From: a virus
Virus record (IMG/VR): IMGVR_UViG_3300025120_000391
Coordinates: 1 to 28,493 of that record
Strand: one strand, 5' to 3'
DNA: 28,493 nucleotides
Part shown: in pieces, positions 1-20,714 of the stretch
Position numbering within the stretch: position 1 is the stretch's first letter
Layout: each line of letters starts with the position of its first letter
Notes under the pieces: model-generated
What the model was told of the DNA's origin: nothing
Seen by the model: the letters and a program-made list of their open reading frames with translations, nothing else
The model's database searches: none
Position numbers and translations under genes: made by a program

Positions 1-3000
1 TGTGAACGATCATTAATCATTGCTTTTTGATAATACTTTGTTCTGTTTTGGTCGTTACTAAAAAACATTAGCTGACTAAGAATTAAATCAACAGCACTTA
101 GTTTGCTATGTTCTTTTGCAACATCTCCTTGATAATTTACAGCATCATCAATCATCCAATTAAATTCGCCAGTTTCCCAAACAGAATCAAAAACAGGGTT
201 GCTTCTCCATAAATAAACATCACCATTTTTAGTCCTTACTTTTTTATCATATTTTTCTTTTGCAAATGCAGAATGTCTTTTTGCATCAGCAAAAGTTCTA
301 TTTAAATAAGAACCAAATCTAATTGTACTAACAGTATTACCGGAAGAGTTTATAAACATATTAGCATTATCCAAACCTCTATCGTAAGTAAAACTAGCAA
401 AGTTCATTAACGCATTTACCTTACCGTCAACAGTTTGAATTTTTTTACCTGAATCATTTTTTATGCTAAACTTATCGTAATATTTACTTCCTTCTGTTTT
501 ATCTAATTGTTCAGCGGCAGTGTTTAAAACATCAGCCATAAAAAACCTCATAGATAAAACTTCTCTCTTTTTTGCATCTGTTTCGCTTCTAATATCTTGT
601 AAGGCTTTTGCTCTTTTTGTAATAGCTCCTTCGTTATTTATTTTAGTGTCTGCTTTTTGCTCATCAATAAGCCAGTTAATATATTGGTCAACAGTAAAGT
701 CATCTACTCTATCAAGCAAAAAATTACCTAGCCTATTAACCTGTTCAATGTCAAAATTAAACGTTCTTTCATCGTACTTAAATCCCCACTCTGGATTATT
801 TTTTTTCCTTAAATTCTCTAAAAGATCCGATATATTTCTTTTTGCAGAATTAACATCATTACCTCTACCAATAACAATTCCAAGGTTTCTAAATAGTTCA
901 CTCGTAAGCTTTTGCTTAATATCAAATGTTCTTGCTTGTCTTTTTTTAGATTTACTTACTGAAAATATTGAAGCACTTTTAAAACCTTTTTCATCCTCTT
1001 TAACAACTATTGATTTTTGAGGTATTGATTGATTTGATAACGCTTGATTTAATATAGATTGTAAGTCTGAAGTGCCAAACTGTTCGTCATAGTCTTTAAC
1101 AGCAACTAAAGTATTAAAAAGGGCAAAAGGTATATCGTTATTAGCAATTTTTGAGTCTTCACTAATTCTTGCTTTTAACTCATCAACAGTGCTACTTTTC
1201 ATAGCCGCATCAGTTAAGTAAGCAAAAACATCGTCTTGGTGTAATCTATCTCCATTACTATCAACCAATCTAGCCAACAAAGCATTAATAGAAGTGTTCA
1301 TTTTTTTAGAACCCTTTATAGCTTCTTTTTCTATTTTACCTGTTTCTGACTCTGTCTTTTGTTCTCTTTTAATAGCTTCATCAATATCAACTTGATTAAC
1401 TGACTCTGTAGGTAATACGGCTAAATACTCAACAACGCTATTTATGTGATCTTGGTAACTAATACCTTCATCATACATAGCGTTCTTTAAGAGTATTTCT
1501 GTTTGATTTAAGAAACTTAAATCATTAAACTTAACCTCATTAAACTCTTCGTTATTAGCTTTAAGATTTTCGTACTCTGTATTTAACTTGTCAGTATAAA
1601 CAAAATTACCTGACTCAAGTTTATCGCTAATCATTTTTTTAACACTACCTAAAACATCAGCAGCACCAAATGAAACATCACTATAATGCAAAGAATTTAT
1701 AGCAAATCTTTTAATATTTTTTAAAAGAAATCCACTATTAAAATTAGCATCTTTTACACTTATTGCTTTTCTTTCATATTTTTCAACACCCGATAAATAC
1801 GAAGTGTCAACCATTATAGGTTTGTTGTTAAATACTAAGGAGTCTGCTAAGTAGTCAACGTAGCTACTAGGCTTGTAGCCTGTAAACATTCTTTTAATCG
1901 CTCTCCACAACTTTTTAGCGATAGACATCCATTTGGTTATCTGACTATCAGAAAGTCTTTCCTCAAGCTTAGGAATAGCATTTTCAGACATAGCCTGCAC
2001 CAAAGCTTCCATAGCTTGTGTACGACCTGTATCGTTTGGATAAGAGCGTTTTGCATCAGTAAAGTATTGAGTTGTTTTAATCCAATCTAATGCTAAATCA
2101 ACAATTTCTTTATCAGCAATTAAATCTAAATATACGTGAGCAAATTCGTGTACTAATGTACTTTGAAATGCTTGGTCACTAATCGTAATACCTTTTTCAG
2201 AAACCTTACCTAAAACTTCAGCACCATACTTATCAAAAAGCATATCTACTGTACTAACAGGAATATTAGGAAACATCTTTTTAAAATGTCCTTTTATCTT
2301 TTCATAAAGTTCTAGATTGTCTGCTATCTTTTGTGATTCTGCAAATTTAGAAGCAACACCTTTTCGTTGAAGAAAGCCTCCTGTGTCTTCACTTGGTTTA
2401 TCTTCTATTTCGTTTTTATTAACTTGTGCTTCTTTTGTGTTTTGATTGTTATTGCTTTCTGCATTTTTTATTTCTTGTTCAGTAGCAGTTTTTTCAACAG
2501 TATCATTATCAGCAACACTAGTGCTAGACCCCCCATCATTTTTAGTAGTTTCTACCTCTACGTCTTCTTCTGTTTTTTGTTCAATAGTTGTAGTAGTTGT
2601 AGGTTTTAAAGCTAAAGTTTGTTTTTCAATTTCCTTTAAAACAGTTTCTTTAACACTCATTGTCTGATCAATTGTATTAAATATATCCTTACCTAATTGA
2701 CCTGCGTTTTCTAACCTTTCTTTTTTACTTAGATTTTTGTTATCTTCTTTAATTTGAGCTGCACTTCTATTATCACCTTTCGTTACAGGATTTCTTTTAC
2801 TATATTCTATTGCAAATTTACTTGCAGATTCTTCTGCTGTTTGATTCTCTAAAGAGCCCTCTGGTGTTTGAAGCCAGTTAGAAACAACACTTTCTAAAGA
2901 TGTATCATCGTTAATTTTAACTTCAGTAGTTGTATCAGTTGTAGGTTCTGCTTTGGTTTCTTCTTTACTATCCTTATCAGTTTCTTTGCTACCTTCGGTT

Positions 3001-5648
3001 TTTTCATCCTTTTTAGGTTTTATTGCGTCTCTATATTTTTGAAATTTTTCACCTTCTTTTTTTGCTTTCTTTTCTATTTCGTTAATAATAGCATTTGCAC
3101 TTCTTCTGTTTTTTAAATCAGACTTGGCTCTATCATAAGTTTCACGAATATCATCTTCAGTAAGACTACCTGCTTGTTCTGCTTGTCTTAAAGATGTTGC
3201 TGTTTTGTAAACATTAGGTGTGGTTTTTTCTTCCGCTGGTTTAGACTCTTCCTTTTTCTTTTCTTTTGCTTCAGTAGGTTTAGGATTAGCAAGATTATTT
3301 TTTAATCTCTGCATATCAATAGCAGATTGCTTTTCTTTTTGGTTAGGGTCTCCTTCTTTTATATTTTCTTCTTCTTCTTGCAGTTGTTCTTCTGTAGAAC
3401 CTTTTAAACTTTCAGAATATATATCTGCTTGAAAAGCTACTACTTCTGTTTCTTTTTGTTCTGGCTTTTCTTCTTTAGTTTCTTCAGGTTTTGTTTCTTT
3501 TTTTGCAAAATCTTTATCTTCTTTAACAAACTTATCTTTAGCTTCGTTTATTTCTTTTTCATAAACCTCAAACATCTCTTGCTCTTGCTCTGTAAAATCT
3601 TGCTCCTTTATAAGTTTACTAGCTAAATAGTTTATTCTGTCTTGAGAAATAACGCCATCTTTTTTAAATCTGTTATATTCTTCTTCTTCTATTTTACCTA
3701 AAGCCTTACCTCGTTTTTTTGCTTTAGAAATATTTTCTTTAAAATCAGACTTGTAAACTTTATCTATTTCTTCGTTTAGTTCTTCTTTAGTAGTAATTGC
3801 ACCACTTTCAATACCTACAGCAATAGCTTCGTAGGCATTCATTTTGTCATTAAACTCGTTTGGGTTTTTAGTTTCTGCTTGACCGCTTGCTAAAATTTCA
3901 GCAGAATTAACTCCTATTGCATCAAGCAATATTTTAAACAATCCGTTTCTTTCTTTGTTTATTTTAACAGACTCTTCTACTTGTGCATCTATTGCATCAC
4001 CCGCCTTTTCTCTTACTTGGTCTTCAGTTAAAGTTTTACTCTGTACGTTTTTAAATGCTCTATTTAAATTAAACATTTGATATTGAGCAACAGGATCACT
4101 TACTATTTTTACTACTTGATTTTGCTCTACAAACGAAGCCATTTCGTCTATTAGCTCGTTAGTAGCATTATAATCTTTTTGTGATATGTTTTTAGATTTA
4201 ACTGCTTTATCTAAAGCTTCTTTAATGTTTTCTCTATTTGTTGTTTTTTTGTTAGATACATCATCAGCAACAAGATTAAATATACTTTCATTACCTACAT
4301 TTCTTTCACCCGGCATAGCGTTTAATCTCATACCAGCCATTCCTCCACCAATAATACCACCAAGTATTCCTGCAAATACACTATTAGTAAATGTTTTTTT
4401 AGAATCTTTTCCATCTGTAAAAAACTCACCAATAGAATCAGCTTCTAAATCAAATACTTCTGTACCAAATTTTCCTTTACCAACAGTAGCCTCATCTTTA
4501 GCAAACATTTCATCATACATTTGCTTTGCCCCTTCTTCTATATAAGTCTGTCCAAACTCTTGTCCAAACTCTATAGCAGCACCTTCAACTACATTTAACG
4601 CTTTTAACCCTTTTGAGTATACAGGTAAAAAAGAATCCATTAATTGATTAGGAGTTTTTTTAGCTCCACTTTTAAAAGCTTTTTTAGAAGCCGCCTTTAT
4701 TAAGGCACGTTGAGCAGTTCTAGCAGGTATCTTACCAATCCATTCTAATGCCGCACCTTCTGTCAAAGAAACTACAGAAGCAACACCTAAAGCAAATCTA
4801 GCCGAGCTAGTAGGGTCTAAGCCTGCTTCTCTTGCCTCGTCTTGCACCATGTTATACATCATGGTCGTTCCTCCTAAAAAACTCCCTATACGGGCAGAGT
4901 TTTGTAAAGACTTTTCAGCACGTGATTGAATCTTTGCAAGTTTATTTTGCATGCTTTGTTTAACAACAGGGTCAACCTTTTTAAACTTAGGTATCTTGTT
5001 TGAAACCTTTCCTGCTTTGCTTGACTTAAAAATATTATTAGCAGCTTTGTTTATTTGATTTCTAGCTGTAGCACCGGCTTTATACCAACTTGAAGGGTCA
5101 GCTTCAAGTATTGCTTTTCTTGCTCTAGAAACAGACCTACCACCTTTACCAAGTAACTGTCCTGCTTTTGCAAACTTTCCTATCCCTGCAACAAATCCAA
5201 TACCATTTCCTAAACCAGCCCAAAAATGAGAAGAATTTATATCTCCAAATTTTTCTATTGGCTTATAGTAATCATCAGAATATATGTACTCAAAATTTTC
5301 AGCTGTTTTATTTACTTTTTCAATCCAATCGTTAGCAAATTCTGTTTCTTGTATTGCATTAGAAATAGTAGGTATTAAATTAGCCACACCTTCTGCAGTA
5401 CCAACAACAAAACTGTTCCAAAAACCAGCAGCAGCATCGTATAATGCGCCTTGATTAAATTCGGTGTCAGTAAAACCTTCTTCTTCAATTCTTATGCCCG
5501 GATTATAAGGGTCAACCGTTTCTTGTATGTTACTAAGGTCTTTAGATATAGCGTTTAAATCAAAATTTTGTTCTAGTCGAGATAAAGCTTCCTTATGCAG
5601 TTCGGGATTAAATTTTCTTTCTTGTTCAGAAGTTGGATTTTCTGGCAT
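1..5648 (-). CDS. Giant virion-type polyvalent protein with zinc-protease (HEFAH) motif, partial
   Basis: An uninterrupted reading frame starts at ATG 5648-5646 and is still open at the left edge, giving about 1882 visible residues; the C-terminus is outside. The N-terminal 450 residues hold several Ala/Gly-rich hydrophobic stretches, including a run of Gly and Ile near residues 420-438 that could contact a membrane. Residues about 600-1080 are a highly charged Lys/Glu/Thr-rich linker. At 2150-2136 the motif HEFAH (residues 1167-1171) is preceded by STLV, the pattern of a zincin metallopeptidase; Glu1214 in MEALVQAM is a possible third zinc ligand. Phage proteins of this size next to tail genes are often packaged in the capsid and injected with the DNA; multi-domain examples are called polyvalent proteins. 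Inference: a cargo protein that enters the host and may cleave a host target. Virion RNA polymerase is an alternative, but I saw no catalytic DxDxD motif in the visible part. Confidence 0.8.
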   Translation of the reverse strand, partial: MPENPTSEQERKFNPELHKEALSRLEQNFDLNAISKDLSNIQETVDPYNPGIRIEEEGFTDTEFNQGALYDAAAGFWNSFVVGTAEGVANLIPTISNAIQETEFANDWIEKVNKTAENFEYIYSDDYYKPIEKFGDINSSHFWAGLGNGIGFVAGIGKFAKAGQLLGKGGRSVSRARKAILEADPSSWYKAGATARNQINKAANNIFKSSKAGKVSNKIPKFKKVDPVVKQSMQNKLAKIQSRAEKSLQNSARIGSFLGGTTMMYNMVQDEAREAGLDPTSSARFALGVASVVSLTEGAALEWIGKIPARTAQRALIKAASKKAFKSGAKKTPNQLMDSFLPVYSKGLKALNVVEGAAIEFGQEFGQTYIEEGAKQMYDEMFAKDEATVGKGKFGTEVFDLEADSIGEFFTDGKDSKKTFTNSVFAGILGGIIGGGMAGMRLNAMPGERNVGNESIFNLVADDVSNKKTTNRENIKEALDKAVKSKNISQKDYNATNELIDEMASFVEQNQVVKIVSDPVAQYQMFNLNRAFKNVQSKTLTEDQVREKAGDAIDAQVEESVKINKERNGLFKILLDAIGVNSAEILASGQAETKNPNEFNDKMNAYEAIAVGIESGAITTKEELNEEIDKVYKSDFKENISKAKKRGKALGKIEEEEYNRFKKDGVISQDRINYLASKLIKEQDFTEQEQEMFEVYEKEINEAKDKFVKEDKDFAKKETKPEETKEEKPEQKETEVVAFQADIYSESLKGSTEEQLQEEEENIKEGDPNQKEKQSAIDMQRLKNNLANPKPTEAKEKKKEESKPAEEKTTPNVYKTATSLRQAEQAGSLTEDDIRETYDRAKSDLKNRRSANAIINEIEKKAKKEGEKFQKYRDAIKPKKDEKTEGSKETDKDSKEETKAEPTTDTTTEVKINDDTSLESVVSNWLQTPEGSLENQTAEESASKFAIEYSKRNPVTKGDNRSAAQIKEDNKNLSKKERLENAGQLGKDIFNTIDQTMSVKETVLKEIEKQTLALKPTTTTTIEQKTEEDVEVETTKNDGGSSTSVADNDTVEKTATEQEIKNAESNNNQNTKEAQVNKNEIEDKPSEDTGGFLQRKGVASKFAESQKIADNLELYEKIKGHFKKMFPNIPVSTVDMLFDKYGAEVLGKVSEKGITISDQAFQSTLVHEFAHVYLDLIADKEIVDLALDWIKTTQYFTDAKRSYPNDTGRTQAMEALVQAMSENAIPKLEERLSDSQITKWMSIAKKLWRAIKRMFTGYKPSSYVDYLADSLVFNNKPIMVDTSYLSGVEKYERKAISVKDANFNSGFLLKNIKRFAINSLHYSDVSFGAADVLGSVKKMISDKLESGNFVYTDKLNTEYENLKANNEEFNEVKFNDLSFLNQTEILLKNAMYDEGISYQDHINSVVEYLAVLPTESVNQVDIDEAIKREQKTESETGKIEKEAIKGSKKMNTSINALLARLVDSNGDRLHQDDVFAYLTDAAMKSSTVDELKARISEDSKIANNDIPFALFNTLVAVKDYDEQFGTSDLQSILNQALSNQSIPQKSIVVKEDEKGFKSASIFSVSKSKKRQARTFDIKQKLTSELFRNLGIVIGRGNDVNSAKRNISDLLENLRKKNNPEWGFKYDERTFNFDIEQVNRLGNFLLDRVDDFTVDQYINWLIDEQKADTKINNEGAITKRAKALQDIRSETDAKKREVLSMRFFMADVLNTAAEQLDKTEGSKYYDKFSIKNDSGKKIQTVDGKVNALMNFASFTYDRGLDNANMFINSSGNTVSTIRFGSYLNRTFADAKRHSAFAKEKYDKKVRTKNGDVYLWRSNPVFDSVWETGEFNWMIDDAVNYQGDVAKEHSKLSAVDLILSQLMFFSNDQNRTKYYQKAMINDRS

Positions 5649-5684: not shown

Positions 5685-7265
5685 TTAATTACCGTATGTG
5701 GACATTTGATAATTTACTACTCTTTCTGCTTCTTCAACTGAATAACCTTGATTAAAAACTAAATCATCAACCATTAATTTAAAATTATTTTCGTAATTCA
5801 TAACATCTCCTTGAAAAGTATTTCCTGCTTCGTAGTTTTGTATGTTAGTTCCTAAATTTCTAAACTTGGCAAGTTCTGTTGTAAAGCCTTTATCATAAAC
5901 TTCTTTTTCTACAGGTATAAAAACAAATCCTTCGTAACCATCTTTCTCTTCTACTCTGTAGCCTAAATCTTCATCATTGTCTTTAATTTCTATTCTTCGA
6001 GTTTTTTCTTTCCAATTATTTACGTTGTATGTGTAATCCTTAATATCATCAGGAGCAAAGTCGTCTTCATAAAAAACTTTAGCTTTTATAAAAGATTCTA
6101 CTTGTCCTGTGTTTGGATTTTCTTTAGCTACTTTTTCTAATAAGTTTATTGTAGCATTACTTAAATCATATTTCCCTACACCTTCATTTCTTTCTTCTTC
6201 ACTAGCATTAGCGTAATGTTCATCAAAAGCCGTTGGAACAACATCTTTAAAATAACTCTTAAAAAATTTCTGCTCTTTAGGTGGTATTCTTATTGAAGCA
6301 CCTTTAGCCGTAGGGTCTGCGTTTTTGCCTATTGTTGGCAACATTTTACCTGCGTTCTTTTTTAATCGTGTGTACTGCGTATTAAGTGTGTTTGTAATTT
6401 GTGTTTTACTTGAGTCTTTACCTCCTCTTGCTTTTCTGTACTCAATATCAGATTTCATTTTTTCTAACTCAAACTGATTCATAGCTTTCCATTTCAAAGC
6501 ATTTTCAGCAGTTAATCCTTCTCCATATTCATTAGCCACCTGATTTGCTTGCTCGTCGCTTATACCTTGTAATTTTAAAGCTTCTCTTACGTCTAATTCT
6601 GTAACTATATTGTCAGCAGACCAAGGCTTTTTAGCGTCTTTAAAATTAGATTTAAAAAATTGAGGATTAATACGACCTTTCTTTTCAATCGTTCCAACTT
6701 GTATCCTATCCAACAAACCTCTTTTACGTAAAGCCATTTGCTCTTCCATAGTTAAATTTTTTCTTTCTCTAACTATTTCGCCATTTTTCATTTTAGGCTT
6801 TCCTTGAGAATCAAATACCGGAACATCTATTTCTGCTCTGCCAACAAACATATCTTTTTGTTTAGCATCTATATATTGAGCGTATTGAGCTTTATTGCTG
6901 ACAGCATTTTTCATTTCGCTAGAAGTTAATATACTTCTTTGGTACTCTCCTAAATCAGTTACACCACCGGAAGCCATGTATTTCTTTAAGTCTCCGTTAA
7001 ATTTAGTAATCCCTTTTATAATGCTTAATCTAGATTGTTGCTCTTTTTGTTCTATTGCTTTTTGATCTTCAGGCAATACGTCAAACGTAGACATCTTATC
7101 TAACATTTCCTGCATACCTGCTTCGGCTTGCATTTGTGCTGCCATTTGTTTTTCAGAACGTTGTTCCATACGTTCCAACATCATTAAGTTAGACATTTTA
7201 TCTTGACGTTTTTGAGCCCAATTATCTGTTCCCGACAACGCTGCGTATAATCCAAAATCACCCAT
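5685..7265 (-). CDS. Probable internal virion/cargo protein (526 aa)
   Basis: A 526-residue protein of unknown biochemical function. The first ~70 residues are Met/Gln-rich and predicted helical (MQAEAGMQEMLDKMS and similar), followed by alternating charged helices. No catalytic motif, signal peptide or membrane segment is visible. Its start overlaps the stop of the upstream 61-residue gene by 8 bases, so translation is probably coupled. It sits between the muzzle/M23 genes and the giant protein, where crAss-like and other podovirus-like genomes carry proteins packaged inside the capsid or needed for ejection. Inference from context and composition: a virion-internal structural or cargo protein. 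A tail-associated role cannot be excluded. Confidence 0.7.
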   Translation of the reverse strand: MGDFGLYAALSGTDNWAQKRQDKMSNLMMLERMEQRSEKQMAAQMQAEAGMQEMLDKMSTFDVLPEDQKAIEQKEQQSRLSIIKGITKFNGDLKKYMASGGVTDLGEYQRSILTSSEMKNAVSNKAQYAQYIDAKQKDMFVGRAEIDVPVFDSQGKPKMKNGEIVRERKNLTMEEQMALRKRGLLDRIQVGTIEKKGRINPQFFKSNFKDAKKPWSADNIVTELDVREALKLQGISDEQANQVANEYGEGLTAENALKWKAMNQFELEKMKSDIEYRKARGGKDSSKTQITNTLNTQYTRLKKNAGKMLPTIGKNADPTAKGASIRIPPKEQKFFKSYFKDVVPTAFDEHYANASEEERNEGVGKYDLSNATINLLEKVAKENPNTGQVESFIKAKVFYEDDFAPDDIKDYTYNVNNWKEKTRRIEIKDNDEDLGYRVEEKDGYEGFVFIPVEKEVYDKGFTTELAKFRNLGTNIQNYEAGNTFQGDVMNYENNFKLMVDDLVFNQGYSVEEAERVVNYQMSTYGN

Positions 7266-7580: not shown

Positions 7581-9860
7581 TTATTGATTATTAGCTTTTT
7601 CTATATCAGATTCTACTTTTTTCTTTTGGTCTTTTAAAGTTTTTTGAGCTTTTTCTTTTTGATATTGTTGAGCCATTTTTAAAGCGTTATTGTTGTATTG
7701 TTTTCCTTTTAACATTTCTTTAGACAGTTCATTATAAATACTTCCTTCACCATATTGCTTTTCAAACATTTGCCTTTCTTGCATGTTTTTCATTTTGTCA
7801 CGAACAAGTTGAGCGCCAGTTTCTTTATTTAACATAGCAACTTTAAAACTATCGTCAAACTTTCTTCTATTATAAATTTCATCAGCCCCCGCTGCTCTGT
7901 CAAACCTTTGTTGATTCATTCTACGTACTGCAGAGTCTTCTGCTCCTATTTGAGCGTATCTGTTTTGTAAAGTTCCTGCCGCTCTACCTAAATTGCCTAA
8001 AGCAACACCAGAAGAGCCACCGGCAAATCTTCTAATGTTTTTGACATCATAACCAAATCCACGTTCTGCAAGTTGTTTACGCAAGCCCATTTCTTCATTT
8101 GACAAGCCCATGTTTCTTTGCCTATACGCTTCGTCTGTATAAGCGTTAAACATTGCACCTTTTTCGTAAGTAGGAACTTCTGACATTGCACCTTTTAATC
8201 CCATTAAACCAACACCTATATCACTAGCCATTGATATTAAATTACCATACTTGTCAATGTTTCTATTTTCTAACATAGATAAATCAGGAGTAAACTCTTC
8301 TACTGTTTCAGAATCTTCTAATTGTTTGTTTATTTCAGCTAAAGTTTCTTCAAGTGCTTCTTTATCATAATATTGTTCTTTGCCTAAATTAACGTCTGTT
8401 GTTTCGTCTTCTAAATTATCAACTTCTGGAGAAACACCAACATCAAAAGTTACCTGACTTGTATCTAAAGAAGTTGTAGTATTGCTACCTATTTTTCCTT
8501 CTGTTTTTTGTTTTTTTAATTCTTCAGCTATGTAATTTTGAAAAGGTTCTGTTTTACTTATTTCATTATACTTTTTATCAAGAGCCTTAAAATCTTCATA
8601 TCTTTGTACTTGAGAATCACTTTTATAATCAAATTCTTTACTTCTTTGACCACCTGACCCTCCTCCTGGCAATTTACCGTAAGTGTAATTTGTTACATTT
8701 TTACGTATAGCATCTACTTCTTTATTAAAATCTTCTTGAGAACTTTTTATTTCTGTTAAATTAGATTTTGCTTTTTCTATATCGCTTTTAATTTGTTTTC
8801 TTTCTTCAGGAGTAGCGGTAATTATTTTTCCTTGTAAAGATTTTAATTGATTTTCTGTAAAAACTTTAGAGTCTTGTATGTTTTTTTGTATCAAAGGTAT
8901 TCTAGCTGTATTTTCATATACTTCGCCTATTACAGAATAATCTAAATCTGAATCCTCAAATTCTATTTCTGACTGTTCAAATATTTGTCTTGTTTTTTCT
9001 ACAGACTCTCTTGTTACACCATCTTCAGAAATTACATTATTAATTTCGTTTATAAATAATTTTGCTTTGTCATTCTGTTTTGTAGTCTGAACAGAGCCGT
9101 CTTCGTTGATTTTTATTTTATTATAAATGTTATCAGTTTCACCATCTTCAGTAGTTTTACTAGCAACAGAATATTTAGAATTTCCTATAGTAACAAGATT
9201 TATTGAAGGAACTCCGTCAATAGAATTAACACTAGATTTAGTGTACGTATTTAATAGTCTTTCTCTTTGATCTCCATCTTTATCTGTTGTTTTTAAATAA
9301 GCTACCCATTTTTTATCATCAGTAGAACTTCTTACATCAAGTTCAGGTTCAGCATCTAAATTAGTTTTATTGCTACCCGAAATGTAAGTAGAAGGGTCTA
9401 TATGAGTTTCTAATTGTGTACCTACCTCTCCGTTAAATACTCTATATTTAATGTGAGGACCTGTACCTGAACCAGAGCCTACTCCGTACCCACCTAAATC
9501 GTCTCCTCTTTTTACTCTTTTCCCAATTATGTTTTTTTGTTCTTCAGGAGTCATAGCATCTAAGTGCATGTATTGCGACCTCGTACCATCATCGTTTTTA
9601 ATTATAAGATAATAGCCACCCGATTTTTCTTTACCTGTATCTACTAATGTTGGAGAACCGTCTAAAGAAGCTACTTCTACAACACCGTCTGTTAAAGATA
9701 CAACTCTCTCATTGTCGGTAGTCATATCTATTCCTTTAGAATGCTGCCCTTCTCTATTTTTAAAATCTTTACCTCTTACACCGTAACCATCTGTAATATT
9801 TATAGTCCTATCTCCTATAGTAACTTTTTGTTGTTTTTTTAAAGTTTCTTCTTTAGGCAT
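7581..9860 (-). CDS. Virion protein with N-terminal degenerate M23 peptidase domain
   Basis: 759 residues. Residues ~20-150 look like an M23 (lysostaphin/LytM-type) peptidase fold: GYGVRG, then H40-SKGI-D44 (the HxxxD zinc pair), YMHLD at 96-100, VKRGDDLG at 115-122, and GPHIKYRV at 133-140. Active M23 enzymes have HxH at the last site; here it is H135-I-K137, so one zinc-ligand His is replaced by Lys. The domain may be inactive or bind the metal differently. Residues ~260-420 and ~510-550 are long charged helices. The C-terminal ~200 residues are Arg/Gln/Met-rich and helical, like ejection proteins. M23 domains in virion proteins normally cut peptidoglycan during DNA entry. Inference: an injected or tail-tip protein whose peptidase domain may now be structural. 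It is not a lysis endolysin, being far too long and placed among virion genes. Confidence 0.8.
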   Translation of the reverse strand: MPKEETLKKQQKVTIGDRTINITDGYGVRGKDFKNREGQHSKGIDMTTDNERVVSLTDGVVEVASLDGSPTLVDTGKEKSGGYYLIIKNDDGTRSQYMHLDAMTPEEQKNIIGKRVKRGDDLGGYGVGSGSGTGPHIKYRVFNGEVGTQLETHIDPSTYISGSNKTNLDAEPELDVRSSTDDKKWVAYLKTTDKDGDQRERLLNTYTKSSVNSIDGVPSINLVTIGNSKYSVASKTTEDGETDNIYNKIKINEDGSVQTTKQNDKAKLFINEINNVISEDGVTRESVEKTRQIFEQSEIEFEDSDLDYSVIGEVYENTARIPLIQKNIQDSKVFTENQLKSLQGKIITATPEERKQIKSDIEKAKSNLTEIKSSQEDFNKEVDAIRKNVTNYTYGKLPGGGSGGQRSKEFDYKSDSQVQRYEDFKALDKKYNEISKTEPFQNYIAEELKKQKTEGKIGSNTTTSLDTSQVTFDVGVSPEVDNLEDETTDVNLGKEQYYDKEALEETLAEINKQLEDSETVEEFTPDLSMLENRNIDKYGNLISMASDIGVGLMGLKGAMSEVPTYEKGAMFNAYTDEAYRQRNMGLSNEEMGLRKQLAERGFGYDVKNIRRFAGGSSGVALGNLGRAAGTLQNRYAQIGAEDSAVRRMNQQRFDRAAGADEIYNRRKFDDSFKVAMLNKETGAQLVRDKMKNMQERQMFEKQYGEGSIYNELSKEMLKGKQYNNNALKMAQQYQKEKAQKTLKDQKKKVESDIEKANNQ

Positions 9861-10707: not shown

Positions 10708-13700
10708 TTATTTTCTGTTAGAAAGTCTGTAATGATTTATTAAGTTATCAATTTTAATTGAATAGCTTGTGTTGTTTTGAAATTCAAAAATCATAGATAG
10801 CCACCTACCTCTCATACGGTCTAATTGATTTTGAGTTCTAATCGGCATTCTAAAGTTGTCTTCTAAAAACCTTACTCTTGTGTCTGATTGAACATCATAA
10901 AAATGTTTTTGTTGTTCTGTAGAGAAAATAAATTTACTCATCTTATCAACGCCTTGCTTATTAACTGCTACCCTTACGTTATCAAACAATTTAGAAAATT
11001 CACCTTGATCACTAACTGTAACTTTTAAACTTGTTTTCCAATTTTGACCATAATAATTAGCGTGTAATTCATTTTTGCCATGAACATAATATTTTTTAGG
11101 TTCAAGACTAGCCTGCTCACTAATTAAAAATTTATTATGAGAAATGTAAAAGTTAGGTTTAAAAGAATGAAATTGACTAAATGACTCTATGTATTCAGAA
11201 TAAACTACTGTTGCCCTAAAAGGCGTTATTTTGCTTTTATCAGTCAATAATGTGTATGACCAAACATCTGTGCTTGAATCTCTGTAAAACATATAGTTTT
11301 CACCCGGTTGTATTAAAACTAATCCGCTACTACCAGAACCTATATACTGTTTAACACCCATTGCATTAGATGTACTTTTTAAAGAAATATATTGTATAAT
11401 ATTAGTATTGTTTCCAAATTGACTATTACCCGCTGGCAAAGCTATTCCTTGTAAAACACCTGAAACGCCTTGCCAATTAATAAATACTGTTTCGTTATTA
11501 CCGTAATAAAACTCATTGTCAATTAAATCAGAGTTAATAGTAATTCCGTAATTAATACTAAAATATTCGTCTCTATTAAAAGTCCACAAGACTTCTCTAT
11601 CTTTAGAATTCCAAACTCCTAGTATTCCATTGTTATTAATTGGGTTGTCTTTATTTAAAAAGAAAGAAGATTCTTTTGCAAAGAAATAATGCATGCCTCT
11701 TAAATCAGAAAGATAACTTAATCCATCTTGAGCAAAACGCATTGCTTTTCCATTATAAACATCTATCCAATAAAATGCTTTTCCTGTGTTTACTAAAGAC
11801 CATTGGTTTTGATTACCAACAGAAGTTGATACATAATCAACACCATCTAATGCCGGACCTATACCAGTTGTTAAAGATTGAGTTGTTTCACTTTCTAAAG
11901 CTGCTCTATCAAACGCTCTAAGCCTACCAAATCCGGTTTCTTGAAAAGAATAAATTTGATTAAACAAAAAACTTGAGCTTGTAATTGGACCGTATACACC
12001 TTTTAAATCTTGAAATTTATTTACTTCAAACTGTCGCCAAGTATCAATAGGGTCGCCATAATATTTAGTTTTTGTATGCCTCCATCTAATAGGAAATTCA
12101 TTAATACTATCAAAATCTATAGGTTTTCCAGTAAAGAAAGTTGTTAATTCGCTAAAATTTATAACGTCATTATAATTAAAAATTTCTAAACGATTATTAG
12201 TTGAAGACGTATAAAACAAACCATTTGTCCAAATACTAGGAGTACCTCCAGGTCTAATACTAACATCAGTATACATTCTTTCTGGGTTTGTATTTGATTG
12301 TCTTAAGCTGTAATTATTTTCACTTTCTAAAGGAAAAACAATTCCATATCCAACTCCCGAATTACCGCTTGCCCCACTTCGTATTCTAGGATAAATTCTA
12401 GCAAATCCAAAATAATTTAAATAACAATCTCCGCCAAAAATTTCAATTTGATTATAAATATTACTAGAAGGAGTTGTAAAAGCGGTATTATTTATTGGTT
12501 GAAAATGACCTGTTGAATAAAAAATAGTTTCAGACAAACTACTAGCTGTTAAACCTCCATAAGCAGTTTCTGCTATGTTATCTCCATTTCTAGTGTAATT
12601 GCATATTAAAGCTCCTGATTGAGTTCCAGTAGTTAGAGTAGAGCCGCTATTATAGTTAAAAGCGCAAGAATGAGAATCAGACGTTAAACCTCCGGTAAAA
12701 TCTAAATGCCTATATAAAATACTATTTGGTTTTCCACCGCCTGCAAATTCTGTGCTATTCCCATAGCCTTCGGTATTAGGCGCACTGTCAGTTTCAAATT
12801 GTGTTGCATTATCAAAGTCAGTAGAGCCTCTATAATTTGGTAAAGATTGATTAATATTTAAATTATATTGATGTGTTATTTTAGCTGTCATTCCGTATGA
12901 AGGACGAATTTCTGCAAAAGTACCAGATACATTATTGTGATAATTATTAAAAGTTCTATACCATTTAGTAATCATTACGGCATTATCATCACCATTAGGG
13001 TTTTGGTCTAAAAATGTATAATTTGGACGATTAAATGAGTTGTCACCGGCATTGCACTGTTTATAGCAAGAGCCAACAATTTTTAATCTGTCACTATTAG
13101 TAACAACTGGCAAATTATTTGCAACATCAAAATCTACATCAGGAGCGTGTAAAATACAATCATTAGGTTTTATCCTAAATTTTTGACCGTTACTTCCTTT
13201 TATGCCAAACAGTTCAAATTCACCCGGATAACTTCCTGCCGCCCCTATTCTCATATGGCTTACCGGCCAAGGTCTTGTTCTTCCATCATCAGGATCAAAT
13301 GTGTTTGGCAATATCAAGCCTTGATGTAGTATTGATTTATTTCTATCTGTTCTAACAATAGAAAATCCGCTAATTCTATCTGCAATACCTGACAAATCTA
13401 AACCTCCAACTTCAATACCCATTATTCTAAGGTCTGAATAACCTGTATTATAATAACTTGTATTATTAATTAAATAGTCGGACAATAAATTTGTGTTATG
13501 AAAATCATTAGTAGGTACAGCAGGCTGTGTTAAAATTGCACTTCTTTGTCTTATAGTGCCATCTTGTTTTAATCTACGCCACTCATAAGATGTACTATAT
13601 TGATCTGGAAATAAAAAATCAGCTAAATGAAAAGCAAAATACGGATTTCCAACTTTATCGTAAAAAACAATACCAAATCTATAAACTTCACCACGAAAAT

Positions 13701-15030
13701 AACCGGTAAATAAATGCTCTACTTGTGTTCCGTTATAATTAGCGTAATCATTTTTTATACTATAAGTTTCTAAACTTGATTGATTTAATCTTTTGTTTGT
13801 AGTTACGTCTGTCCAGTCTTGGTCACGAACAAGAGGTGGTTGAGCTCCGACTGAGTCATAATTTTGATTGTTAGGTTTATGCTTATCGGAAGGCATATCT
13901 CTAAACTTAGGGCTAATTGTTAAGTCTACTAAAACCGCTTCTATTTCTTCGTCTGTAATAGACAATCTATTTTCGTTAATGTTTCCATAATACAAAACAT
14001 TGTCTTTAATATCTAATGTCTTTGCCGAGCTAACTGCTTGAAACTTTTCAGCTATAGTTGCTGCTACAACAGGTACACCATCATTAGAAGTGTGTTCAAA
14101 AGTCATTGTAGAGCCAGTTATTTCTGTTCTTAAAAAAATATTTGAAGAGTCTACAACTGTGGTTGTTTTAGAGTATAAATAAACAATTTCTATTCTTTTG
14201 TAATTTACATCTATACCTTTAATTTCTATTTTGATACCTTTTGATGAAGACTCACCAGAGCCTTCCATTTCATAACGAGGGGAATTGTCTCCATCAACAA
14301 CATCAGAAGTAACAAATATTTTTTTAGTAGGAATTGTCCAAGGAGTTACATATCCGTCAATTGTTAGCAATCTATAAGCATATTGATAAACACCCGTTAA
14401 TAAACTACCAGCAATATTTTCTACAAATTTTACTATACCAATATTAAAATCAGGTTGACTATTTATATTGTGTACAGATGTAGTTACTGTAGAGTATGCG
14501 TTTACATTATTTTTTGACAATCCAGTTGTTACATCATATTTAAAAGTATAAACACGTGGAGGATTAGATTTTGGAGTTGTTTTTTTTATCCCATCAACCC
14601 AATAAACTCTAATTTTTTCATTATTTTCATATAAAAATCTAGCGCATATTTCATTTTCTGGATTAAAACTTAATTTATTTGTATCAAGAGTATCATTAAA
14701 TAAAGTTTTATAAGTTCCTTGACCATCTTTATCAGTTCCAAGTATTCCGATTTCAGAAGCAGACAAATCTTCTTTAACAGAAAATATAATTTTTATATTA
14801 CCATCACCACAATAACCTATAGGAGCGTACCTTTCAGTATCATTACCGCTGTTTCCATTTAAAGTAAATGTAAGTTTATTACCATTGTCTTCTACCCAAT
14901 CAAGTGTTCCCCTTTTGTTAAACATTAACCGACCATTAATGTTGTCAACCATAGATGACGAGTTAACATTAGTTGGGTCGTAATCTCTATTTAAACCTTT
15001 GCTAAATGTGTTTTTACTAATCTGCCCCAT
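10708..15030 (-). CDS. Tail muzzle/stabilisation protein, crAss-like (1440 aa)
   Basis: At 1440 residues this is the longest complete gene in the window. The N-terminus (MGQISKNTFSKGLNRDYDP) has the F.kGL..D..P pattern I associate with the crAss-like tail stabilisation or muzzle protein, which extends the short tail nozzle. The rest is Asn/Ser/Thr/Tyr/Gly-rich with many predicted beta strands, typical of a large beta-propeller/nozzle protein. There is no enzyme motif, transmembrane segment or signal peptide. Its ATG overlaps the stop of the upstream ring-like gene as TAATG, so the two are coupled. Position after the ring proteins matches the neck-to-tail order of short-tailed phages, equivalent in role to T7 gp12 or P22 gp10. 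A receptor-binding function for parts of it is possible but not shown. Confidence 0.85.
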   Translation of the reverse strand: MGQISKNTFSKGLNRDYDPTNVNSSSMVDNINGRLMFNKRGTLDWVEDNGNKLTFTLNGNSGNDTERYAPIGYCGDGNIKIIFSVKEDLSASEIGILGTDKDGQGTYKTLFNDTLDTNKLSFNPENEICARFLYENNEKIRVYWVDGIKKTTPKSNPPRVYTFKYDVTTGLSKNNVNAYSTVTTSVHNINSQPDFNIGIVKFVENIAGSLLTGVYQYAYRLLTIDGYVTPWTIPTKKIFVTSDVVDGDNSPRYEMEGSGESSSKGIKIEIKGIDVNYKRIEIVYLYSKTTTVVDSSNIFLRTEITGSTMTFEHTSNDGVPVVAATIAEKFQAVSSAKTLDIKDNVLYYGNINENRLSITDEEIEAVLVDLTISPKFRDMPSDKHKPNNQNYDSVGAQPPLVRDQDWTDVTTNKRLNQSSLETYSIKNDYANYNGTQVEHLFTGYFRGEVYRFGIVFYDKVGNPYFAFHLADFLFPDQYSTSYEWRRLKQDGTIRQRSAILTQPAVPTNDFHNTNLLSDYLINNTSYYNTGYSDLRIMGIEVGGLDLSGIADRISGFSIVRTDRNKSILHQGLILPNTFDPDDGRTRPWPVSHMRIGAAGSYPGEFELFGIKGSNGQKFRIKPNDCILHAPDVDFDVANNLPVVTNSDRLKIVGSCYKQCNAGDNSFNRPNYTFLDQNPNGDDNAVMITKWYRTFNNYHNNVSGTFAEIRPSYGMTAKITHQYNLNINQSLPNYRGSTDFDNATQFETDSAPNTEGYGNSTEFAGGGKPNSILYRHLDFTGGLTSDSHSCAFNYNSGSTLTTGTQSGALICNYTRNGDNIAETAYGGLTASSLSETIFYSTGHFQPINNTAFTTPSSNIYNQIEIFGGDCYLNYFGFARIYPRIRSGASGNSGVGYGIVFPLESENNYSLRQSNTNPERMYTDVSIRPGGTPSIWTNGLFYTSSTNNRLEIFNYNDVINFSELTTFFTGKPIDFDSINEFPIRWRHTKTKYYGDPIDTWRQFEVNKFQDLKGVYGPITSSSFLFNQIYSFQETGFGRLRAFDRAALESETTQSLTTGIGPALDGVDYVSTSVGNQNQWSLVNTGKAFYWIDVYNGKAMRFAQDGLSYLSDLRGMHYFFAKESSFFLNKDNPINNNGILGVWNSKDREVLWTFNRDEYFSINYGITINSDLIDNEFYYGNNETVFINWQGVSGVLQGIALPAGNSQFGNNTNIIQYISLKSTSNAMGVKQYIGSGSSGLVLIQPGENYMFYRDSSTDVWSYTLLTDKSKITPFRATVVYSEYIESFSQFHSFKPNFYISHNKFLISEQASLEPKKYYVHGKNELHANYYGQNWKTSLKVTVSDQGEFSKLFDNVRVAVNKQGVDKMSKFIFSTEQQKHFYDVQSDTRVRFLEDNFRMPIRTQNQLDRMRGRWLSMIFEFQNNTSYSIKIDNLINHYRLSNRK

Positions 15031-19343: not shown

Positions 19344-20714
19344 TTAAGCAAAAATTAATTGTCCACATGATAGTGGATTTCTAACTATCATTCCTGATTC
19401 TGAAAGTATTTCCATTGAAAAACTATCTCTAGAAGATACAGCCATCATTTGCGCTTGATTGAACGGGTCAACCATTCCAGGCAAATACTTAATAATCATT
19501 GAACGATTAATACCTCCTGCACCTTTAACTTTTCTTTCAATGTTAGAAACACCGTCAGTTTGTCCAAAGTTTAAGAATACCATTCTAAACGATTCTTTCA
19601 AGTAACCAGATTTAGGGTCAATGTCAGTATGTAAGTTTGGATCATCAAAGATAGGACAGTGAGCAAGAGTAAGTCTACTTCCAAGAGCATTGTAAGTTGT
19701 AAAGTTAACTCCAATTTCAGTTTCTGAACCAACTTTAGCATCATACACCAAGTTACCTGATGGGTAAACTAAATCTTTCATTGCTTTGTGGAAAGCTACT
19801 TTACCGGCAGTACCAGTATAAACTATCCAATGAGAATTCATTTCTCCTGTGTTAAGAGATAGCTGAGCTAAAAAGTCAGTAATTCTTTCTTCAGTTAGAA
19901 CACCATTGTAAGTGTCAACGTTTGCAGAATCAATTTGCTTAAGTATTCCGTCACCACTAATAATAGGCTTACCGTTGTTATCAAAAACTTTAGCGTTTCC
20001 ATTAACATCCATAGTTGACTGAGAATACCAATCAGAAACTTCTCTTTCATACAAGAAATCTTCTTCCATGATTTTTTGTTCTGTAAAGAACCAAAGTCTT
20101 TCTCCGTTGTTTTCTATCCAAGTAATATCAGTTAAAGCTGAACCCGTAATAGATTTTGCTTTTCTACTAATCTTAGTATAGTTAACATACCAATCAGGGT
20201 AAACAGAGTTTTCGTAACCTCTTTCAGAACCTTCTGTAAATGCAGAACCTGCAGCGTTAACAGTTTTACCTGCAGTAAAGTTTGCCGCAGCTATTGTTTT
20301 AGTTGCATCGTTAGTTTGTATTTTTGCAGAAAAAGTATAACCCCCTACACTAACAACCGGCTCTCCAATAAGAATTGCAGAAGTTCCATCTTGGAATCTT
20401 ACAATATCATTTGGATTTAAAAAGTTTTCTTCTGTTTCAAAAGTAAATGTACCATTTGCTGCACCGTTACCCCCATAAGTACCTGTAAGGGTAGAAGGTC
20501 TGTTTGTACGACCTAGTACTGCCCACTTAAATGAGTTATCTCCAATAACCTCTTCTTTTGCAAAACGAGACGTACCATCTACAAAGTAATTCAAAGAATA
20601 CTGTGGGTATTGTCTAATTAATGTTGTTGCAATTTCTGGATACTTTAGCAAGTTAGTTACTAAAGCATTCGACTGTACGGTTTCTTTACCGTATGAACCT
20701 TTGTTAAATTTCAT
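19344..20714 (-). CDS. Major capsid protein (HK97-fold, crAss-like)
   Basis: 456 residues. Recognisable crAss-like capsid character: SLNYFVDGTSRFAKEEVIGD near residues 40-60, a beta-rich Gly/Thr segment (residues ~75-145) fitting an inserted domain, then NYTKISRKAKSITGSALTD and a Trp-rich helix (WFFTEQKIMEEDFLYERE), and near the end INRSMIIKYLPGMVDPF. It forms the icosahedral shell. Size is usual for HK97-type capsid proteins and slightly short for crAss-like ones. It sits one gene after the portal, with the acidic scaffold-like gene between. The 35-base upstream gap is A/T-only in character with no Shine-Dalgarno, as expected in Bacteroidetes. A protease-cleaved N-terminus is possible but not visible. 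Confidence 0.9.
   Translation of the reverse strand: MKFNKGSYGKETVQSNALVTNLLKYPEIATTLIRQYPQYSLNYFVDGTSRFAKEEVIGDNSFKWAVLGRTNRPSTLTGTYGGNGAANGTFTFETEENFLNPNDIVRFQDGTSAILIGEPVVSVGGYTFSAKIQTNDATKTIAAANFTAGKTVNAAGSAFTEGSERGYENSVYPDWYVNYTKISRKAKSITGSALTDITWIENNGERLWFFTEQKIMEEDFLYEREVSDWYSQSTMDVNGNAKVFDNNGKPIISGDGILKQIDSANVDTYNGVLTEERITDFLAQLSLNTGEMNSHWIVYTGTAGKVAFHKAMKDLVYPSGNLVYDAKVGSETEIGVNFTTYNALGSRLTLAHCPIFDDPNLHTDIDPKSGYLKESFRMVFLNFGQTDGVSNIERKVKGAGGINRSMIIKYLPGMVDPFNQAQMMAVSSRDSFSMEILSESGMIVRNPLSCGQLIFA

What the first reader, a model, noticed from the sequence alone, without database searches (positions are those of the whole stretch)
1..5648. Giant polyvalent protein with an embedded zincin protease
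More than 1880 residues with Gly-rich hydrophobic segments, a long charged linker and HEFAH at residues 1167-1171 with a possible third ligand Glu1214. Next to virion genes this suggests an injected multi-domain effector whose protease acts in the host cell. I do not know a described target for such a domain in this phage group.
Basis: partly seen in the sequence, partly recalled or inferred. Interest (0 to 1): 0.6.

Follow-up and report, generated by a model that had tools for sequence, protein, structure and literature searches.

The report
Protease domain in crassvirus RNA-polymerase cargo protein
The half-gene at the edge of this phage fragment encodes the front part of a giant protein that a crAss-like phage very probably packs into its particle and injects into bacteria; it contains a genuine-looking zinc-protease domain placed just ahead of the phage's own RNA polymerase, an arrangement already known in related phages, whose exact cutting target has never been shown.

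Summary
ORF 3..5648(-) has 1882 residues and runs off the contig; HEFAH is at 1167-1171 (chance expectation 0.005), and Glu1214 is the nearly invariant third-ligand position in 37 aligned homologues. AlphaFold2 of residues 1102-1281 (pLDDT 90.5) gives a zincin: HExxH on one helix, Glu1214 on a later one. The phage is a crassvirus, and the gene lies where PhicrAss001 gp47, an MS-detected virion cargo protein, lies. Two relatives (59% identity and more distant) show the missing half: 3360-3472 residues carrying the RNA-polymerase motif DxDxDGD, homologous by profile to crassvirus vRNAPs. The zincin matches the zincin of gp47-type proteins (E 4e-7; reversed and shuffled controls 0.03-0.9). So this is not a stand-alone effector. 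It is the zincin-containing N-terminal half of a vRNAP cargo polyprotein. RefSeq already annotates such a protein ('RNAP associated protein fused to zincin protease'), and Iyer et al. 2017 described zincins fused to virion RNAPs as a general feature of polyvalent proteins. Most likely role: processing of the cargo polyprotein at the membrane-module/RNAP junction. Cleavage of a host target is not excluded. New member of a known kind.

The parts
1..5648 (-). N-terminal 1882 residues of a giant crassvirus cargo protein; cut by the contig end
   Evidence: ORF open at contig end; full-length relatives of 3472 and 3360 aa
4209..5471 (-). residues 60-480: Gly-rich, partly hydrophobic conserved N-terminal module (probable membrane/ejection part)
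   Evidence: about 75% identity to nearest relative; hydrophobic peak at 424-442; function inferred
2364..3551 (-). residues 700-1095: charged, poorly conserved linker; relatives carry other inserts here
   Evidence: identity falls to 7-43% in its second half; J-domain-like insert in one relative
1806..2345 (-). residues 1102-1281: zincin-like metallopeptidase domain
   Evidence: 37-sequence alignment, AF2 pLDDT 90.5 / pTM 0.86, VIA-align rows mostly HExxH zincins, hhalign to gp47-type zincins E 4.4e-7
2136..2150 (-). HEFAH, residues 1167-1171, on predicted helix (model residues 61-75)
2007..2009 (-). Glu1214, predicted third zinc ligand on predicted helix (model residues 107-130)
   Evidence: E113 of the domain, nearly invariant; helix in model
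3..1781 (-). residues 1290-1882: region leading into the RNAP half; the RNAP motif itself lies beyond the contig end
   Evidence: aligned to L002 and L026 relatives, in which DADHDGD follows at residues 2538 and 2587
5685..7265 (-). 526-aa protein in the position of cargo protein C2 (gp46-like by synteny)
   Evidence: gene order as in PhicrAss001; weak match to gp46, E 0.02
7581..9860 (-). 759-aa protein with Peptidase_M23 domain, in the C1 (gp45) neighbourhood
   Evidence: Pfam PF01551 1.1e-9
10708..15030 (-). muzzle protein (gp44-like), anchor of the synteny
   Evidence: blastp to PhicrAss001 gp44, E 3e-14 in a six-protein database
19344..20714 (-). crassvirus major capsid protein, assigning the phage
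   Evidence: Pfam Crass_capsid PF23898, 2.8e-52

Best explanation
The ORF is the N-terminal half of a virion-packaged cargo polyprotein of a crassvirus. From the N terminus: a Gly-rich hydrophobic module, a charged variable linker, a zincin-like metallopeptidase (H1167, H1171 and E1214 binding zinc, E1168 as general base), and, beyond the contig end, the double-psi-barrel-type virion RNA polymerase. The protein is packed in the capsid, threaded through the tail at infection, and refolds in the host. The zincin most likely cleaves the cargo proteins themselves, releasing the RNA polymerase from the membrane/ejection part before packaging, in the head, or on arrival. Shown or strongly supported: the ORF, the zincin fold and ligands, crassvirus identity, synteny, fusion to an RNAP in relatives. 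Inferred: presence in this phage's virion (about 0.85), catalytic activity (about 0.8), cargo rather than host protein as substrate (about 0.5).
For: Zincin: chance 0.005; Glu1214 nearly invariant; AF2 pLDDT 90.5 with an N-terminal helix, three strands, the HExxH helix and a Glu helix, matching the core described for polyvalent-protein MPTases in PMC5512222; best structural neighbours are HExxH zincins. Identity: Crass_capsid 2.8e-52; muzzle match; gene order muzzle-C1-C2-giant as in PhicrAss001, whose gp47 is MS-detected in virions (PMC10172136). RNAP half: DADHDGD in both full-length relatives; hhalign to seven crassvirus RNAPs E 3.8e-7 over 196 columns, controls 0.09-0.67; weak Pfam RdRP match 0.0097 to the same region, as expected because crassvirus RNAPs resemble eukaryotic RdRPs (PMC7886860). 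Junction position: in split-gene crassviruses the zincin ends the gp47-type protein (2159/2343, 1777/1993, 1815/2020); in fused giants it lies 1186-1541 residues before the RNAP motif (cr125, cr113, cr10, L002, L026, L056, L075). The HExxH is intact in all of these.
Against: No cleavage product has been looked for here, and I know of no report that crassvirus cargo proteins are cleaved; N4 vRNAP is packaged unprocessed despite its zincin (PMC5512222). PhicrAss001 gp47 keeps the zincin although its RNAP is a separate gene, so releasing a fused RNAP cannot be the only role. phi14:2 g067 and cr111_1 gp32 lack HExxH, so the domain is dispensable in some crassviruses. N-terminal homology to gp47 itself is not detectable (hhalign E 0.011).
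Confidence: 0.55

Rival explanations
1. The zincin is a true effector: after injection it cuts a host protein (defence or transcription factor).
For: The protein is probably delivered to the cytoplasm; the model's structural neighbours include target-specific effector proteases and IrrE/PprI; Iyer et al. list host cleavage as one of three possibilities.
Against: The domain is tied to the RNAP junction across the order, and its sequence is well conserved with no sign of the fast change expected of an arms-race enzyme. No target is suggested by any data here.
Confidence: 0.3
2. The domain is a folded remnant used for packaging or as a structural element, not an active protease.
For: A homologous domain in PhicrAss001 gp49 has lost the first histidine (PEEFAH) yet is recognisable (profile E 2.9e-6; hhalign). 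The zincin-containing region of N4 vRNAP is needed for encapsidation (PMC5512222).
Against: In the gp47-type position the HExxH is intact in every member that has the domain, and the third ligand is nearly invariant in the window's family.
Confidence: 0.15
3. HEFAH is a chance motif in an unrelated helical region.
For: No Pfam match above cut-off; no Foldseek PDB match with E under 0.001; first AF2 run with three sequences was poor.
Against: Expected 0.005 such motifs; third ligand conserved in 37 homologues; confident model with the right topology; profile match to crassvirus gp47-type zincins.
Confidence: 0.03

Closest known systems
PhicrAss001 gp47 (262.5 kDa RNAP-associated cargo protein) and cr11_1 gp65 'putative RNAP associated protein fused to zincin protease'
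   Same: Same position after muzzle, C1 and C2; large size; zincin homologous by profile for gp47 (E 4.4e-7); gp47 found in virions
   Different: There the zincin is at the C terminus and the RNAP is a separate gene; here the two are one polypeptide in the relatives; N-terminal regions not detectably similar; cr11_1 zincin matches only weakly (E 0.033)
Fused giant proteins of Suoliviridae (cr125_1 gp21, cr113_1 gp38, cr10_1 gp32)
   Same: Same order in one chain: N-terminal module, zincin (HEAFH/HEAWH/HEAYH), RNAP (SDFDxDK)
   Different: 4300-4500 residues instead of about 3400; the RNAP motif is SDFDxDKLY/F rather than SDADHDGDKVF
N4-like virion RNAP fused to zincin-like MPTase (polyvalent proteins, Iyer et al. 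2017, PMC5512222)
   Same: Virion RNAP and zincin in one injected giant protein; same zincin core
   Different: N4 RNAP is of T7 type with the zincin C-terminal to it; here the RNAP is of the cellular/RdRP-like two-barrel type with the zincin N-terminal to it

Membership tests
zincin-like metallopeptidase (gluzincin type) of polyvalent proteins | HExxH on a helix | tested here: met
   Model residues 66-70 in helix 61-75
zincin-like metallopeptidase (gluzincin type) of polyvalent proteins | conserved Glu on a following helix as third zinc ligand | tested here: met
   Glu1214 nearly invariant in 37 sequences, in helix 107-130; the distance to the histidines could not be measured because coordinates are not given
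zincin-like metallopeptidase (gluzincin type) of polyvalent proteins | N-terminal helix and three-stranded sheet before the active-site helix | tested here: met
   Helix 11-24, strands 30-33, 46-49, 52-56 against the description in PMC5512222
zincin-like metallopeptidase (gluzincin type) of polyvalent proteins | significant match to a solved zincin | tested here: inconclusive
   VIA-align Z up to 6.3, top rows mostly zincins but Z below 8; Foldseek E 0.45 at best
zincin-like metallopeptidase (gluzincin type) of polyvalent proteins | zinc-dependent proteolysis | not testable with these tools
   Needs purified protein
Crassvirales | crassvirus capsid, terminase and muzzle proteins | tested here: met
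   Crass_capsid 2.8e-52; TerL matches crassvirus terminases; muzzle
crassvirus RNAP-associated cargo protein (gp47 type) | gene directly after muzzle, C1 and C2 | tested here: met
crassvirus RNAP-associated cargo protein (gp47 type) | sequence homology outside the zincin | tested here: inconclusive
   N-terminal hhalign E 0.011
crassvirus RNAP-associated cargo protein (gp47 type) | presence in virions | not testable with these tools
   Known for gp47 of PhicrAss001 (PMC10172136), not for this phage
crassvirus virion RNA polymerase | DxDxD catalytic motif within an RNAP-homologous region | tested here: met
   In relatives L002 and L026 only; hhalign E 3.8e-7. In the window itself the region lies beyond the contig end

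The most novel reading that the evidence does not exclude
Across crassviruses the zincin at the boundary between the ejection module and the virion RNA polymerase is a maturation protease that frees the polymerase from its membrane-bound leader during delivery, so that transcription is switched on by proteolysis inside the newly infected cell.
Probability: 0.3. Interest if true: 0.65.

Novelty: new member of a known kind. Interest (0 to 1): 0.32.

Why it matters
Crassviruses are very abundant phages that bring their own RNA polymerase into the cell, and how such giant cargo is activated after ejection is open. A conserved, apparently active protease sitting between the ejection part and the polymerase gives that question a simple handle: look for the cleavage and mutate one glutamate. 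The family found here (most of the 49 IMG/VR stretches) shows that the arrangement reaches well beyond the gut phages in which it was annotated.

Tried and rejected
tblastn of the whole ORF, of the relative's RNAP half and of the zincin alone against 50,697 phage records: no match. PHROGs and Pfam on the full proteins: nothing above cut-off; over the 37 zincins the commonest Pfam name was SprT-like, sub-threshold. PDB sequence searches: none for the ORF or RNAP half; zincin profiles gave only E above 0.05. First AF2 run with three sequences failed (pLDDT 46.8); the 37-sequence run succeeded. A MAFFT alignment of the second-protein zincin misplaced its EEKLVE motif and was not used for folding. 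Direct hhalign of the RNAP half to phi14:2 g066 found no catalytic-motif alignment (E 0.049); only the family profile worked. A chance HExxH was rejected. A stand-alone toxin/effector gene was rejected because relatives fuse it to an RNAP. Yutin 2018 and Drobysheva 2021 are not held in the library, so their wording could not be checked.

Full report
What is there. The window is a complete IMG/VR record of 28493 bases. On its minus strand it encodes, from right to left, a crassvirus-type block: terminase, portal, major capsid protein (Pfam Crass_capsid 2.8e-52), tail proteins, a 1440-aa muzzle protein, three proteins of 277, 759 and 526 aa, and then the ORF of the finding, which runs off the left end after 1882 residues. 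The terminase matches crassvirus terminases at 25-29% identity, so the phage is a distant member of Crassvirales.

Checking the observation. HEFAH is at 1167-1171 and residue 1214 is Glu. From the protein's own composition 0.005 HExxH motifs are expected. The hydrophobic Gly-rich stretch and the charged linker are as described.

The rest of the gene. One relative, L002 (59% identity in the best segment, matched over the whole ORF), has the complete gene: 3472 aa. A second, on the contig of L026, has 3360 aa. Both continue into a region with SDADHDGDKVFIY, at residues 2538 and 2587. A profile of this region matches seven crassvirus RNA polymerases (E 3.8e-7, 196 columns, ending in their SDFDxDKLY motif); reversed and column-shuffled controls gave 0.09-0.67. 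Pfam RdRP matches weakly in the same region (0.0097), which fits the known likeness of crassvirus RNAPs to eukaryotic RdRPs (PMC7886860). So the finding is the N-terminal half of a virion RNA-polymerase polypeptide. The RNAP half is inferred from relatives and is not in the window.

The zincin domain. Conservation along the protein peaks, among other places, in residues 1100-1290. A scan of IMG/VR for T..HE[FY]AH.Y found 49 stretches, nearly all in very long ORFs, ten of which in the DNA held also carry DxDxDGD. Six of 29 of these contigs carry a recognisable crassvirus capsid gene, so the domain may reach beyond typical crassviruses, although many records are fragments. In an alignment of 37 members Glu1214 is nearly invariant; this column had not been fixed by the search pattern, whereas T, HE, A, H and Y had. 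AlphaFold2 with that alignment gave pLDDT 90.5 and pTM 0.86: a helix, three strands, the HExxH helix (61-75) and a helix with Glu1214 (107-130). VIA-align's best rows are mostly HExxH zincins (anthrax lethal factor protease domain, PPEP-1, PprI/IrrE, further down MATCAP and an entry on DPC-repair proteases) with Z up to 6.3, which is below the level at which a single match is secure. Among predicted viral proteins the best matches are giant crassvirus proteins and, lower down, 'large polyvalent protein associated domain' proteins.

Relation to known crassvirus proteins. In PhicrAss001 the order muzzle gp44, C1 gp45, C2 gp46, gp47 matches the window. gp47 has HEAFH near its C terminus, and the window's zincin aligns with it (E 0.004 in a six-protein database). 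A profile of gp47-type zincins (PhicrAss001 gp47, cr10_1, cr125_1, cr113_1) matches the window's family at E 4.4e-7, controls 0.03-0.9. gp47 was detected in virions by mass spectrometry (PMC10172136). cr11_1 gp65 in the same position is annotated 'putative RNAP associated protein fused to zincin protease'. The domain is therefore known in this order. A second zincin of the same superfamily lies near the N terminus of the next giant protein in L002, L026's contig, L056 and L075. A homologous domain in PhicrAss001 gp49 has lost its first histidine, and phi14:2 g065 carries an intact version.

How it most likely works. Where the genes are split, the zincin ends the gp47-type protein (PhicrAss001, cr11_1, cr107_1); where they are fused, it lies 1186-1541 residues before the RNAP motif. 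All seven fused proteins of this layout have it, against three of five split ones; Fpv20 gp33 is an exception, with HExxH near its C terminus. The simplest reading is that it cuts at or near the boundary between the ejection part and the polymerase. Iyer et al. 2017 (PMC5512222) proposed the same class of role (self-processing before packaging, in the head, or after injection) for zincins fused to N4-type virion RNAPs, and host-protein cleavage as the alternative. Against a simple processing role: N4 vRNAP is packaged uncut, split-gene phages keep the domain, and some crassviruses have lost it. Nothing computed here can separate processing from a host target.

Verdict. Observation confirmed; interpretation partly supported; new member of a known kind, of moderate interest because the cleavage question is directly testable in cultured crassviruses.

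Noticed in passing
L002:15828-16400 (+): The relative's RNAP has an ADP-ribosyltransferase-like insert just after the DxDxDGD motif (Pfam ART-PolyVal 1.6e-4, below cut-off), absent from the otherwise collinear L026 protein.
   Followed up: partly
L026:14200-14622 (+): The variable linker before the zincin holds a DnaJ-like segment with HPDKN (Pfam DnaJ 0.003, below cut-off), while the window and L002 carry unrelated sequence there: a slot for swapped inserts.
   Followed up: partly
L002:18429-21701, L035:10228 onward, L056:7007-7585, L075:7122-7700: The next giant gene carries a second zincin of the same superfamily (TPPHEYAHxY...EEKLV), so two paralogous zincins sit in adjacent cargo genes.
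   Followed up: partly
window 7581-9860 (-): The M23 peptidase domain reads GPHIKY where active M23 enzymes usually have HxH, so it may have lost a zinc ligand; the same change is in L002, and the L026 homologue seems to lack the domain.
   Followed up: no
L040, L047/L063, L048, L067, L068, L086: Giant ORFs from other viral contigs pair the zincin with a different motif, DGDWDGD, 838-985 residues downstream; no crassvirus capsid was found on those of these contigs that were searched, so they may be another phage group with its own virion RNAP.
   Followed up: no
L017:11549-25057 (cr125_1), L020:3392-16378 (cr113_1): The giant RNAP genes contain 73-78 in-frame TAG codons, as expected for amber recoding in these crassviruses.
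   Followed up: no
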